Part shown: positions 15,571-19,920 of the stretch, piece after piece
Numbering within the stretch: the first letter of the stretch is position 1
Layout: every line of letters starts with the position of its first letter
Assembly: GCF_001613545.1 (NCBI RefSeq)
Contig: NZ_BDCO01000002.1
Location: 1,860,001 to 1,924,000 of the forward strand
Source: Terrimicrobium sacchariphilum
GTDB lineage: Bacteria > Verrucomicrobiota > Verrucomicrobiia > Chthoniobacterales > Terrimicrobiaceae
Direction of reading: 5' to 3'
DNA: 64,000 bases
Program-made: the position numbers and the translations under genes
Notes under the pieces: model-generated
Database searches by the model: none
The model's input: the letters and a program-made list of their open reading frames with translations, nothing else
What the model was told of the DNA's origin: nothing

Positions 15571-16568
15571 GCGAGGAATTGATTCAGGAGCTTTTGCAGC
15601 ACGGGCCTGGCCTTGGCGGCTATGGTGGGATTGGCGTAGATCACCCAGGCCATCGGGTGCGTCGTGTTCAATGGCGCATCCGGGAATCCACCGAGGGGGT
15701 GCTCGTAGATGATTCCGGCCTCGGAAAGGACCAGCGCGGCGGAAACATCGTAGGGATGACAGACGAGGGCGGCATCGAGCCCGAGTCGAGCGAAGACCAG
15801 CGGGCGGATGTCGCCGCCAAACCGGTCATGCCCGGAGAGCATTTCATAAAACGCCCCTCCGGTGCTGATGTATTGGTCGTCAAAAACCTGGAGGGGAGCG
15901 GTGCCCTTGTAATCCGTCAACTCCTCCCAGAGGGCCTCCTCGATCTGCGCGGTGAGTGTACGGCCCTCAGGCAGGTACTTTGCCAGCCAGGAGAAGCCGT
16001 GTTCAAACTGCGTGGCTTGCGATGCCTGGAGAAAAAGCGGAGCAGTGCTCCCGTCGAGCACATTGCGGGAGGTGAAGACGCAGCCGCCTCCCCGGGTCGC
16101 GCTGATTTGATCTGCCCGCCATTGTTTGGTGACGGGTAGCTCAGTCATCGCGGCGGCGATGATGCCGGAGAGACGAGTATCGTCTCCTCTCTGTGGAGCG
16201 ACGCCTGCGAGCGTCCATGCGCTACGCTTGTCATGCATGATTCCCCGTGTTCCATCAATCGGGTCGATGATGCACTTCCAGCGGGTGGCGGAAACGTCGG
16301 TACCTGCTGGAAAGCACAGGGGATGGTCGTCCTCGATGCCTTCCATCACGACCTGCACAGGTTCGTCGTGAGGCCAATGTGCGGAGAACCACTCTGAGAT
16401 GGCGTCTTCGCTCAGGCGGTCGATCTGATAGATCGTGTCCGCCGCAGTCTCGGCAGCGATGCCCGAGAGATCCTCGATCGATCTGGATGCTCTTCCGCTC
16501 AGGAAACGCGACTGGATGTGGTCACCCAGCGCGCAAAGAAGCTGGCGGATATCTTCGGGTGCGATCAC
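15567..16568 (-). CDS. inositol monophosphatase-family phosphatase
   Basis: A 333-residue IMPase/FBPase-superfamily member. The metal-binding motif reads WKCIIDPIDGTRGI, matching the DPxDGT signature. The second site appears as HPYDVSAALVLSEAGIIYE, a variant of the usual WDxAAG/EAG element with Tyr in place of Trp. The protein is longer than typical IMPases (about 260 residues), with additions between the two motifs. It starts with GTG overlapping the upstream stop (GTGA) and ends overlapping the acyltransferase start (ATGA). The sugar phosphate it hydrolyses cannot be deduced. Confidence 0.83.
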   Translation of the reverse strand: MIAPEDIRQLLCALGDHIQSRFLSGRASRSIEDLSGIAAETAADTIYQIDRLSEDAISEWFSAHWPHDEPVQVVMEGIEDDHPLCFPAGTDVSATRWKCIIDPIDGTRGIMHDKRSAWTLAGVAPQRGDDTRLSGIIAAAMTELPVTKQWRADQISATRGGGCVFTSRNVLDGSTAPLFLQASQATQFEHGFSWLAKYLPEGRTLTAQIEEALWEELTDYKGTAPLQVFDDQYISTGGAFYEMLSGHDRFGGDIRPLVFARLGLDAALVCHPYDVSAALVLSEAGIIYEHPLGGFPDAPLNTTHPMAWVIYANPTIAAKARPVLQKLLNQFLA

Positions 16569-18070
16569 GGATTTGAGGGGGGCGCCGACGCGTCGGCGGG
16601 CGTAATAACGGCTGGCTGCGGAGCGGTTGGACTCGGGCTGGGCGATGCCGCAGGAGTCGGCGAGCCTGACGGCATGGGAGTCGCGGAGGGTTGGGGAGTT
16701 TCGATGATAAAGTTGGGATTAACCGTTGCTGCCGGGGATGCTCCCGCAGCCGGAGAACCTTCCGGTGATGAACTCGGAGCGGGGCTTGGCGAAGGTTCGG
16801 GCGTGGGGGTAGGCGTAGGTGTCGGGGTGGGAGTTGGCCATGGAGGCACGATGTCCGGCCAGGAGAAAAGCTCCGGTGCGGTGCCGCCGATTTCGTCGAG
16901 ATACTTTTTACACTTGGCCCGCCAATCCGCCAGATTCGGCTGCGTGGCGGGATCCGCCGTTCCTGGGAACACAAGATATGCCACCTTGATGTTGCTGACC
17001 GGGCGCGCGATGGAGGAAGCCTTTGGATTGATCTCCCTGGCCAGGCGGATCGATGCCTCACCGATTTTGGCGGAAGGCCCTGCATCTCCGACGATAGCAG
17101 GGTAGACCACACCGTTGTAGATCACGGCCGCGTAGTCTCCGACCTTGGGGGCAAACGGATCTTCCTTGTCATTAATCATGAATGTCGGGATCACGATCGA
17201 GGGGTCGGTGGACGAGATCAGAAAACTGTAGGTCTTGAGATCGTTGATCGTCCGGGTGGTCTGGTCGATGGCCTGCTGGAGTTCCTTGTTGCGGGCGGCG
17301 GTGAGGCCGGGTACGGCATACTCACGCTTGAAATCCGCCAGCTTTTGCTGATAGCGCGGCAGCAGAGGATTGATCCGGTCGGTGGTGCGTTTCCAGCGAT
17401 AGCTCGTTTGTGGCTGAAAGAACCGACCGGAGTCATCGACCGGGACGTTGCGATCGCCGTCAGTGCCATCGACATTGACGTCCATGTCACCAATGAGAAG
17501 CAGGGCTTTCCGTCCTGTATCGGGCGACGTGAGCTCCAGCATTGTCTCGCAGTCGTAGAAGTTGTGGCGTGAGAGCACTTCGTCCAGCTGGAAGAGCTGG
17601 CTGCGGATTGACTCAATCTTGTTGCTATAGAGCTTCTCGAAGAACGGGGATACCTTCGCATTTTCGACCAGCGACGGCATCTGATTCAGCACATGAGGGA
17701 GCTTGGGGTCATTTTTCGCCAGATCTTCCAGGCTCTTGCTAGCCCGTGGGAGCCTGGCTGTGAAGGTAACCTGTACCTCGTAGGCGTTGTCCTGGGTGCG
17801 TTCGATGGAGGCGAGTTCGTCGCTGGCGGGAGTGGCGAATTTTGTCTGGAAGGTGATGCCGTTGAACATCCGGCCGAGTTCCACCGGTTTGCGAGGCAGC
17901 GCGGGCACGGGGATCGGCGTAGGGGATGGAGTCGATGTCGCGACTACTGGGGTGACCTCCGGGGTCGGAGCAGGAGTCTCCTTTGGAAGGACAGGCTTGG
18001 TGCTCGGTGGTTGGCATCCAGCCAGGACAGCCATCGCACCGGCTCCGGCCAGTAGTCGGACTCGCTTCAT
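16565..18070 (-). CDS. lipoprotein with GH75 chitosanase-like domain and Pro/Thr-rich linkers
   Basis: The 501-residue protein has a lipoprotein signal with lipobox LAGC near residue 19. A Pro/Thr linker runs to about residue 55, and the globular region spans about residues 60-400. The segments LLIGDMDVNVDGTDGDRN, PKVGDYAAVIYNGVVYPAIV and AKIGEASIRLAREIN resemble fungal-type chitosanases of glycoside hydrolase family 75, which cut partially deacetylated chitin. The C-terminal 90 residues are low-complexity Pro/Thr/Ser/Ala, including a (PT)n run encoded at about 16800-16840. Catalytic residues are not confirmed. It lies 2 bp after the transporter-thioesterase gene and overlaps the phosphatase gene. 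Confidence 0.68.
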   Translation of the reverse strand: MKRVRLLAGAGAMAVLAGCQPPSTKPVLPKETPAPTPEVTPVVATSTPSPTPIPVPALPRKPVELGRMFNGITFQTKFATPASDELASIERTQDNAYEVQVTFTARLPRASKSLEDLAKNDPKLPHVLNQMPSLVENAKVSPFFEKLYSNKIESIRSQLFQLDEVLSRHNFYDCETMLELTSPDTGRKALLLIGDMDVNVDGTDGDRNVPVDDSGRFFQPQTSYRWKRTTDRINPLLPRYQQKLADFKREYAVPGLTAARNKELQQAIDQTTRTINDLKTYSFLISSTDPSIVIPTFMINDKEDPFAPKVGDYAAVIYNGVVYPAIVGDAGPSAKIGEASIRLAREINPKASSIARPVSNIKVAYLVFPGTADPATQPNLADWRAKCKKYLDEIGGTAPELFSWPDIVPPWPTPTPTPTPTPTPEPSPSPAPSSSPEGSPAAGASPAATVNPNFIIETPQPSATPMPSGSPTPAASPSPSPTAPQPAVITPADASAPPSNP

Positions 18071-18072
18071 TC

Positions 18073-19920
18073 CTATGTGTAGACCATGAAGGCCGCTGTC
18101 ACCTCGGCCGGGAGATCAATGAGCTTGTAGTCGGTGGAGGCTACGAAAAGCAGCGACTGTTTGCCGTGTCCGAGGAGCTTCTGGGCGGAGTCGTAGATCT
18201 CGTGCTCGAGGATCACGAACTTGCGATTGTAACTCGCAATGCGAATGCGAACGCTCACCGTCTCGAACTCGCGCGTCTCGCGTACGAACTTGTGCTCGAA
18301 CGAACGGGTGAGAATGTAGAACGGCGTGTTCTTCAGGTCGAACTTTGGCATGACCTGGTTGAAGAACAGTTCGCGGGTCTTGCCGACCCACATGGCGTAC
18401 ATGCCGAAGTAGACGTTACCCACCGAGTTCGTATCCGCGTAGGTCGCGACGAAGGAGTGGATGAACCACTTGCCCTCGAAATGTCCGCCGACCGGATAGC
18501 CGCCGGTGACGGGAGCGGCTCCTGTGGCGGCAGGCATCACCGCAGCCGTGGCGGGGCCGATATCCTGCGACGGCGCAGCGAGTTCCTCGGAGTCGCTGAC
18601 AAACTCCTGCGGGGAGCCCGGCTTCAGCAGCAGCCATACGACATAGGCCAGAGGCAGAAGTGATCCAATGATCTGGAAAAGCGGGAGGCGCAGGAAATAC
18701 CCGTAAGCAAAGATGACCACGGCGAGGCTGCCGATACAGAACATCTTGACCTGCGGAATGGCATTGGCCGGGGTGATGACGTAGCAGCGGGCGATCGAGA
18801 GGACGGAATACCCGACGAAGAACGTCGCATAGAAGATCATGAAGTACTCGAGCTCCAGCCTGAGCACAGCCGCGATGAGGGCGATCACACCGGCAAAGAT
18901 GAAGATCGGGATGGGCGATGTGATGAGCCGCTTCGGGATGAGTGCAAAGAGCGGATTGTTTGACAGCGCGGCATTGTCCTGAAGGAACCAGCGGAGCGAG
19001 ATGTAGCCACTATCCAGCGTCGTCAGGATGCAGACACAGATCCACACCGCGTAAGCGCCAAACACCCATGGCGAGGCGTGCTCGAAGAACTGGAGAACCA
19101 GCGTCTCGTGCCCGTAGGTGTAATGTCCTATACCCTGGCGCAGGTAGTGGCTGGCTCCATGGCTCAGCGCCCACAATGTCATCGTCCCATGGAAAATCAG
19201 CATCAGGGTGAACTGGATCGATCCCACCCAATATGCCGCAGCGATGGAAACCCGCTCGCGATGCATCTGGATGGCTCGCTGCCACTGCTGGAGGTCGAGC
19301 CATGGGCCGACGAGGAAGCCGATGATGATGGGGATGACATAGCCCCAGAAATCCCAGTCGGGAGCAAGCATCTTGGGCTCGCCCTGGGCGGTGGCTGGTC
19401 CCGATTGGATCGCGTTGACGATTAGCACTGCGACCGCAGCAGCGAGGATGAGGCCCAGTACGCCGTGGCTGTACTTGATCCTTTTGATGTCAAACTCCTC
19501 GCCAAACAGGATTGCCGCTGCCAGCACGATCAGAAGGGTGAGGGGGAGGTAAAGCAGCCACGGCTGCATGCCGAGCGAGAGCCATCCGTACCGAATAAAG
19601 GCAAAAATCGTAAGGGTGATCGCCAGGAGTTGATACAGGAAGAAGACCAGTCGAAACGGTCTGGACCACGTCGTAAAGAAACGGGCGAGCGATTCCGACC
19701 CCGGCTCACGACGCGCGATATGATGCGTGACCAAGCCAAAACACAACAGCCCGAGGCCGTTGGTGATGGCGAAAATCAGGAGACCAAACAGCCCAAACTG
19801 GGTGGAAAATTGGACGGAAAAGAACAAACCGAGGCCCCACATCCAGGAGAGCGCCACGGAGTTGCCCCAGAGGAGAGTTGGAAACCAGCGAGTCGGAGTC
19901 GAATTCGGGGATGAGGCCAT
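18073..19920 (-). CDS. 12-TM transporter fused to a C-terminal hotdog thioesterase domain
   Basis: The 615-residue product has two parts. Residues about 15-440 contain 12 hydrophobic helices, with GPWLDLQQWQRA in the middle and a TTLDSGY helix start that recall LeuT-fold (SSS/APC-like) transporters. After a 40-residue Ala/Pro linker, residues about 483-612 form a hotdog domain. Its opening TYADTNSVGNVYFGMYAMW aligns with the active-site helix of 4-hydroxybenzoyl-CoA and enediyne-type thioesterases (TNxVGNVYF), with Asp at residue 496. Both parts are in one uninterrupted frame. ATG 19920 is preferred; a TTG two codons upstream is possible. It heads the six-gene overlapping operon. Substrate unknown; a link between lipid-acyl hydrolysis and transport is inference. 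Confidence 0.8.
   Translation of the reverse strand: MASSPNSTPTRWFPTLLWGNSVALSWMWGLGLFFSVQFSTQFGLFGLLIFAITNGLGLLCFGLVTHHIARREPGSESLARFFTTWSRPFRLVFFLYQLLAITLTIFAFIRYGWLSLGMQPWLLYLPLTLLIVLAAAILFGEEFDIKRIKYSHGVLGLILAAAVAVLIVNAIQSGPATAQGEPKMLAPDWDFWGYVIPIIIGFLVGPWLDLQQWQRAIQMHRERVSIAAAYWVGSIQFTLMLIFHGTMTLWALSHGASHYLRQGIGHYTYGHETLVLQFFEHASPWVFGAYAVWICVCILTTLDSGYISLRWFLQDNAALSNNPLFALIPKRLITSPIPIFIFAGVIALIAAVLRLELEYFMIFYATFFVGYSVLSIARCYVITPANAIPQVKMFCIGSLAVVIFAYGYFLRLPLFQIIGSLLPLAYVVWLLLKPGSPQEFVSDSEELAAPSQDIGPATAAVMPAATGAAPVTGGYPVGGHFEGKWFIHSFVATYADTNSVGNVYFGMYAMWVGKTRELFFNQVMPKFDLKNTPFYILTRSFEHKFVRETREFETVSVRIRIASYNRKFVILEHEIYDSAQKLLGHGKQSLLFVASTDYKLIDLPAEVTAAFMVYT

What the first reader, a model, noticed from the sequence alone, without database searches (positions are those of the whole stretch)
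18073..19920. A 12-helix transporter fused in frame to a hotdog thioesterase
Seen: one uninterrupted frame joins about 440 residues of 12 hydrophobic helices to a 130-residue domain opening with TYADTNSVGNVYFGMYAMW. Known: that opening is the active-site helix pattern of 4-hydroxybenzoyl-CoA and enediyne-type (TNxVGNVYF) thioesterases, which are normally small soluble tetramers or dimers. Inference: the membrane part may import or export an acylated molecule, or its product, that the thioesterase releases on one face. I do not know a described system with this architecture. The neighbours (acyltransferase, phosphatase, chitosanase-like lipoprotein) make a lipid- or glycan-linked substrate attractive.
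Basis: partly seen in the sequence, partly recalled or inferred. Interest (0 to 1): 0.75.

Follow-up and report, generated by a model that had tools for sequence, protein, structure and literature searches.

The report
Transporter-like protein fused to a thioesterase
One bacterial gene makes a single protein that joins a 12-helix membrane transporter-like part to an enzyme part of the kind that cuts fatty or polyketide chains off their carrier; this undescribed combination is conserved in many Verrucomicrobiota and also occurs in Methylorubrum extorquens, so it is a real and testable new protein design whose substrate is still unknown.

Summary
On the minus strand, 18073-19920, one 615-residue frame joins a 12-TM half (about residues 10-434), a disordered linker (435-478) and a hotdog domain (479-615). 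The hotdog half matches enediyne-type thioesterases (5VPJ, EspE7, DynE7, CalE7) by sequence and predicted fold and keeps the residues aligned with CalE7 N19 and R37. The membrane half misses every Pfam model but is a diverged, shortened relative of the sodium:solute symporter (SSS) family. Loop charges place the hotdog in the cytosol. The fusion is unbroken in all 110 loci examined, nearly all Verrucomicrobiota, is under purifying selection, and recurs in Methylorubrum extorquens AM1 (32% over 612 residues). In another verrucomicrobial lineage an unfused relative of the membrane half is encoded directly after a probable hotdog protein of another family. Neighbours do not identify the substrate: context changes between orders, and the adjacent GH75-like lipoprotein is common without the fusion. 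Best mechanism: a membrane-bound cytosolic acyl-thioesterase whose carrier half moves the released acid; a sensor role for the membrane half is a close rival. Substrate, ion and direction are inferred. I found no description of this architecture in the searchable papers.

The parts
18073..19920 (-). Whole gene: 615-aa SSS-like membrane half fused in frame to a hotdog thioesterase half
   Evidence: one open frame, ATG at 19920, stop 18075-18073; same architecture in relatives
18619..19920 (-). Residues 1-434: 12-TM half, SSS-type core without the first helix of SSS proteins, N and C ends predicted cytosolic
   Evidence: helices; 26% over 305 aa to SSF protein L123, E 1e-15; hhalign to SSS, E 1e-6; positive-inside count
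19006..19026 (-). Residues 299-305 LTTLDSG in TM8; T300/T301 align with a Ser/Thr pair of an SSF protein in the Na2-site region; T301, D303 and S304 invariant
   Evidence: invariant columns; aligns with MSTLDSG of L123
18487..18618 (-). Residues 435-478: variable, disordered linker
   Evidence: pLDDT below 50 for 436-476; 27% mean pairwise identity; dN/dS 0.18-0.53
18076..18486 (-). Residues 479-615: hotdog domain, enediyne-thioesterase type, predicted cytosolic
   Evidence: 77% mean pairwise identity in the family
18427..18429 (-). N498, aligned with CalE7 N19, invariant
18373..18375 (-). R516, aligned with CalE7 R37 and with the Arg mutated in EspE7 R35A (9CCR), invariant
16565..18070 (-). 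Neighbour only: GH75 chitosanase-like lipoprotein starting 2 bases downstream; linked in about 32 Chthoniobacterales loci, not in other orders
   Evidence: present in 54 of 58 relatives with or without the fusion

Best explanation
A membrane-embedded acyl-thioesterase. The cytosolic hotdog half, working as a dimer as hotdog enzymes do, hydrolyses an activated acyl-ACP or acyl-CoA thioester at the inner face of the membrane using the N498/R516 pair. The SSS-like carrier half, coupled to Na+ or H+, moves the acid that is released (most likely outward) or a closely related carboxylate. The fusion hands the product to the carrier and frees tied-up ACP or CoA. Shown here: the fusion and its conservation, the two fold families, cytosolic placement by charge, the conserved active-site residues, and the second, unfused pairing with a probable hotdog protein. 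Inferred: catalysis, dimerisation, the transported substrate, the ion and the direction.
For: Unbroken fusion in 110 loci and in M. extorquens AM1. Enediyne-type active-site residues N498 and R516 invariant. Both halves under purifying selection and diverging together (distance correlation 0.86). The TM8 Thr pair is kept in the fused family. Positive-inside count: K+R 15.1 per 109 residues in predicted cytosolic loops without the linker, 4.3 per 65 outside. An unfused relative of the membrane half (hhalign E 8e-9) directly follows a gene of about 200 aa in 7 of 7 genomes, with a 4-base overlap in six and abutting in one; the model of that protein, though poor, matched only hotdog proteins among the top 50 PDB hits. 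The fusion is kept in genomes as small as 1.7 Mb and in many genomes without the type I polyketide synthase of this genome, which suggests a substrate from core acyl metabolism.
Against: No transport or hydrolysis has been measured. The membrane half fails every Pfam model and lacks the first SSS helix. It diverges faster than the enzyme half (58% against 77% mean identity), and the unfused relatives have lost the TM8 motif, so the carrier half may no longer transport. SSS carriers normally import, which fits product export poorly.
Confidence: 0.4

Rival explanations
1. Sensor model: the SSS-like half is a receptor, as in the SSS-histidine kinases CbrA and MxtR; ligand or ion binding in the membrane switches the cytosolic thioesterase on or off, with little net transport.
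For: SSS domains are known as input domains fused to cytosolic output domains; CbrA lacks the Na2 residues of PutP (PMC7918813). Here the output half is the more conserved one, and unfused relatives lose the TM8 motif but keep the probable hotdog partner.
Against: The fused family keeps the TM8 Thr pair and many invariant polar residues in the helices; no STAC, PAS or kinase domain is present. CbrA itself does transport histidine.
Confidence: 0.27
2. Anchor model: the membrane half only holds a thioesterase next to membrane-bound acyl substrates.
For: The membrane half diverges faster and has lost one helix relative to SSS.
Against: Twelve helices with invariant polar residues are more than an anchor needs, and dN/dS of the membrane half is about 0.02.
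Confidence: 0.15
3. The hotdog half is not an enzyme but a ligand-binding regulatory domain (an acyl-CoA sensor) that gates the carrier.
For: Hotdog folds can serve as acyl-CoA-binding regulatory domains (own knowledge: FapR).
Against: The N498/R516 pair aligned with the enediyne thioesterase active site is invariant across the 43 aligned sequences and kept in AM1.
Confidence: 0.12
4. Artefact: a lost stop codon or an assembly error fused two unrelated neighbouring genes.
For: None found.
Against: 110 loci, two phyla, strong purifying selection.
Confidence: 0.01

Closest known systems
Sodium:solute symporter family (SSS, PF00474, TC 2.A.21; PutP, vSGLT, SiaT)
   Same: Membrane half homologous to SSF protein L123 (26% over 305 aa, E 1e-15) and to an SSS profile over residues 17-406; TM8 Ser/Thr pair kept
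   Different: No Pfam match, first SSS helix missing, 12 TM instead of 13, carries an enzyme domain
Enediyne-type hotdog thioesterases (CalE7, DynE7, SgcE10, EspE7)
   Same: Fold, DTNxVGNVYF pattern, N498/R516 equivalents, best PDB hits
   Different: Known members are separate soluble proteins working with enediyne polyketide synthases; this one is tethered to a membrane carrier and shows no linkage to a polyketide synthase
SSS domain-containing sensor proteins (CbrA, MxtR/CrbS)
   Same: SSS-like domain at the N terminus fused to a cytosolic output domain
   Different: Output is a histidine kinase with STAC and PAS domains there, a hotdog thioesterase here
Hotdog fusion proteins catalogued by Dillon and Bateman 2004 (for example LpxC-FabZ, YiiD acetyltransferase-hotdog)
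   Same: Hotdog domain fused to a functionally linked protein
   Different: That paper's 18 architectures are described without the words transporter, symporter or transmembrane in the main text (its figure was not readable)

Membership tests
SSS family (PF00474) | Match to Pfam SSF above the curated cut-off | tested here: not met
   no SSF match in the window protein or in 27 family members
SSS family (PF00474) | Homology to accepted SSF proteins over the core | tested here: met
   BLASTP E 1e-15 to L123, itself SSF at 3e-28; hhalign probability 91, E 1e-6, residues 17-406
SSS family (PF00474) | 13-TM topology with the extra N-terminal helix | tested here: not met
   12 helices; homology starts at residue 45 of L123
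SSS family (PF00474) | Na2-site Ser/Thr in TM8 | tested here: inconclusive
   T300 nearly invariant and T301 invariant, aligned with MSTLDSG of L123; residue equivalence only by alignment
SSS family (PF00474) | Na+-coupled solute transport | not testable with these tools
   Needs a transport assay
Enediyne-type hotdog thioesterase | Hotdog fold with closest similarity to CalE7/DynE7/EspE7/5VPJ | tested here: met
Enediyne-type hotdog thioesterase | Asn and Arg active-site pair (CalE7 N19, R37) | tested here: met
   N498 and R516 invariant
Enediyne-type hotdog thioesterase | Stand-alone protein encoded with an iterative polyketide synthase | tested here: not met
   Fused; no PKS among the conserved neighbours; the own-genome PKS does not co-occur with the fusion
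Enediyne-type hotdog thioesterase | Hydrolysis of a polyene or beta-ketoacyl thioester | not testable with these tools
   Needs an enzyme assay
4-hydroxybenzoyl-CoA / YbgC-type thioesterase | Catalytic Asp near the start of the domain (DxD/GHV pattern) | tested here: not met
   Asn (N498) at that place in all sequences aligned; position equivalence from the motif
SSS-dependent sensor kinases (CbrA type) | STAC, PAS and histidine kinase domains after the SSS domain | tested here: not met
   only 4HBT-type domains after the membrane half

The most novel reading that the evidence does not exclude
The two halves work as one machine: thioester hydrolysis by the hotdog dimer drives or gates the carrier, so that an acyl group is moved across the membrane as it is released (vectorial deacylation). 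Fused and operon-encoded hotdog partners would then define a class of thioesterase-coupled carriers.
Probability: 0.12. Interest if true: 0.85.

Novelty: new variant of a known kind. Interest (0 to 1): 0.55.

Why it matters
SSS-type carriers are known fused to signalling domains but, in the papers I could search, not to a metabolic enzyme; hotdog thioesterases are known as soluble proteins or in other fusions, not joined to a carrier. A conserved carrier-thioesterase chain, together with a second lineage that pairs a relative of the carrier half with a probable hotdog protein of another family, predicts a direct link between acyl-thioester hydrolysis and membrane transport or sensing. A homologue on the megaplasmid of Methylorubrum extorquens AM1, a tractable laboratory strain, makes the question testable by simple gene removal.

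Tried and rejected
Frameshift or missed stop: rejected. Neighbours as a guide to the substrate: rejected as evidence, because context is not conserved between orders and the GH75-like lipoprotein occurs without the fusion. Polyketide synthase as substrate source: the genome has a 2093-aa KS-AT-DH-ER-KR-ACP synthase, but many fusion carriers lack a relative of it at E 1e-60 and several non-carriers have one. Direct Pfam or PDB assignment of the membrane half: nothing, resolved through L123 and profile comparison. Relatives in viral contigs: none. Sequence proof that the ~200-aa partner gene in L124/L125 is a hotdog: Pfam, NCBIfam, PDB profile and hhalign comparisons negative; only the Foldseek result of a low-confidence model supports it. 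Literature searches for the architecture: nothing; the CalE7 mechanism paper is not held.

Full report
Observation. The frame at 18073-19920 is on the minus strand. It reads 615 residues from ATG at 19920 to the stop at 18075-18073. The C-terminal part matches Pfam 4HBT_2 (8e-9, residues 495-611); the N-terminal part matches no Pfam or NCBIfam model. The gene is single-copy in its genome.

Fusion is real and old. A scan of one genome for each of 84,980 species found 157 loci encoding relatives, of which the best 80 were kept. A search of 58 relatives found 38 with a match; one of these (G050) is an SSS protein without the hotdog, the others are the fusion or fragments of it at contig ends. In all 110 loci read, one uninterrupted frame carries the fusion at 50-100% identity, a few cut by contig ends. 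Apparent splits are contig ends (G018, G021, G036) or one frame of 645-646 aa (G041, G048). By record titles the carriers are Chthoniobacterales, Methylacidiphilales, Verrucomicrobia subdivision 6 and Akkermansiaceae-type genomes. In an even phylum sample of 289 genomes only six carry it, so it is patchy. A search of plasmids found a full-length fused homologue on the megaplasmid of Methylorubrum extorquens AM1: thioesterase half 54% identical, membrane half 28%, whole protein 32% over 612 residues, E 2e-77. dN/dS to the two nearest relatives is about 0.02 for the membrane half, 0-0.007 for the hotdog half and 0.18-0.23 for the linker.

Hotdog half. Its closest solved relatives are 5VPJ (8e-12), EspE7, CalE7, DynE7 and SgcE10, and Foldseek of the AlphaFold2 model agrees. 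The alignment puts N498 on CalE7 N19 and R516 on CalE7 R37, and the Arg mutated in EspE7 R35A is the same one; both residues are invariant in the 43-sequence alignment. That N19 and R37 are catalytic in CalE7 is my own knowledge (Kotaka et al. 2009; the paper is not held). 4-hydroxybenzoyl-CoA thioesterases have Asp where Asn 498 stands, so the enediyne type is the better comparison.

Membrane half. Directly it matches nothing in Pfam or the PDB. It does match L123, a protein with a clear SSF domain (3e-28), at 26% over 305 residues, E 1e-15, and an SSS profile built mostly from the same genome (hhalign probability 91, E 1e-6, residues 17-406). The match starts at residue 45 of L123, so the first SSS helix is missing, leaving 12 helices. 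The TM8 motif LTTLDSG aligns with MSTLDSG of L123, the region of the Na2 site in SSS carriers (own knowledge of PutP); T301 is invariant. Predicted cytosolic loops (without the linker) hold 15.1 K+R per 109 residues against 4.3 per 65 outside, which places the N terminus, C terminus and hotdog in the cytosol.

A second pairing. Seven genomes of two other families of the phylum carry an unfused relative of the membrane half (about 390 aa; hhalign E 8e-9 to the fused family). In all seven it directly follows a gene for a protein of about 200 aa, with a 4-base overlap in six and abutting in one. The partner is better conserved than the membrane protein (about 73-84% against 55-66% identity), the same asymmetry as in the fusion (77% against 58%). 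Its AlphaFold2 model is poor (pLDDT 47), yet all 50 top Foldseek hits are hotdog-fold proteins (best E 2.7e-3, probability 1.0); sequence profiles do not confirm it. I treat it as a probable hotdog.

Context. In the window the fused gene is followed, 2 bases on, by a GH75-like lipoprotein, then an inositol-phosphatase-like gene, a DUF374 acyltransferase and a FolD-like gene. The lipoprotein link holds in about 32 Chthoniobacterales loci but not in other orders, and the lipoprotein is found in 54 of 58 relatives, including 17 of the 20 with no match to the fusion. A divergent LptF/LptG gene recurs in 18 loci, also only in part of the group. None of this names a substrate. Many fusion carriers, including small genomes, lack a close relative of this genome's polyketide synthase, which points to core acyl metabolism rather than a polyketide.

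Mechanism. Best supported: a cytosolic acyl-thioesterase built into a carrier, with the carrier half moving the released acid. The enzyme half is more conserved than the carrier half, so a sensor model like CbrA (PMC7918813) is a close rival; an anchor and a non-enzymatic hotdog are less likely. Steps shown: fusion, conservation, fold families, residues, orientation (by charge). Steps inferred: catalysis, dimerisation, substrate, ion, direction.

Novelty. The main text of the 2004 hotdog survey counts 18 architectures without any transporter or transmembrane partner being mentioned (PMC516016); the SSS review describes kinase and other signalling fusions (PMC7918813). Searches of open papers found no account of this architecture, within the limits of that library. 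I call it a new variant of a known kind (an SSS-type fusion protein) with a partner I could not find described.

Noticed in passing
L125:1437-3217 and L124:1471-3257, also L132-L138: Unfused two-gene version in other families of the phylum: ~200-aa probable hotdog protein directly before a ~390-aa SSS-like membrane protein that lacks the TM8 TLDSG motif; the small protein is unusually well conserved.
   Followed up: partly
L152:8403-10238 (NC_012811.1 about 658402-660237): Fused homologue on the Methylorubrum extorquens AM1 megaplasmid, unannotated in the PLSDB table; an unknown 554-aa membrane protein lies downstream and a LuxI/LuxR-type pair (L152:1410-2958) lies in the same region.
   Followed up: partly
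window 16565-18070 (-): GH75 chitosanase-like lipoprotein, nearly universal in the order (54 of 58 relatives); its D329 and E338 stand nine residues apart, as do D148 and E157 mutated in viral chitosanase V-Csn structures, in the aligned stretch, so it may be an active envelope enzyme.
   Followed up: partly
L167:8059-14340 (-), G000 contig 2 about 3198058-3204339: A 2093-aa type I polyketide synthase (KS-AT-DH-ER-KR-ACP) in the same genome, with close relatives in only some of the order.
   Followed up: partly
L078, L091, L107: Bins labelled Proteobacteria, Paceibacterota and Blastochloris carry verrucomicrobial-type fusions at 53-61% identity to the window protein; most likely mislabelled or mixed bins.
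   Followed up: no
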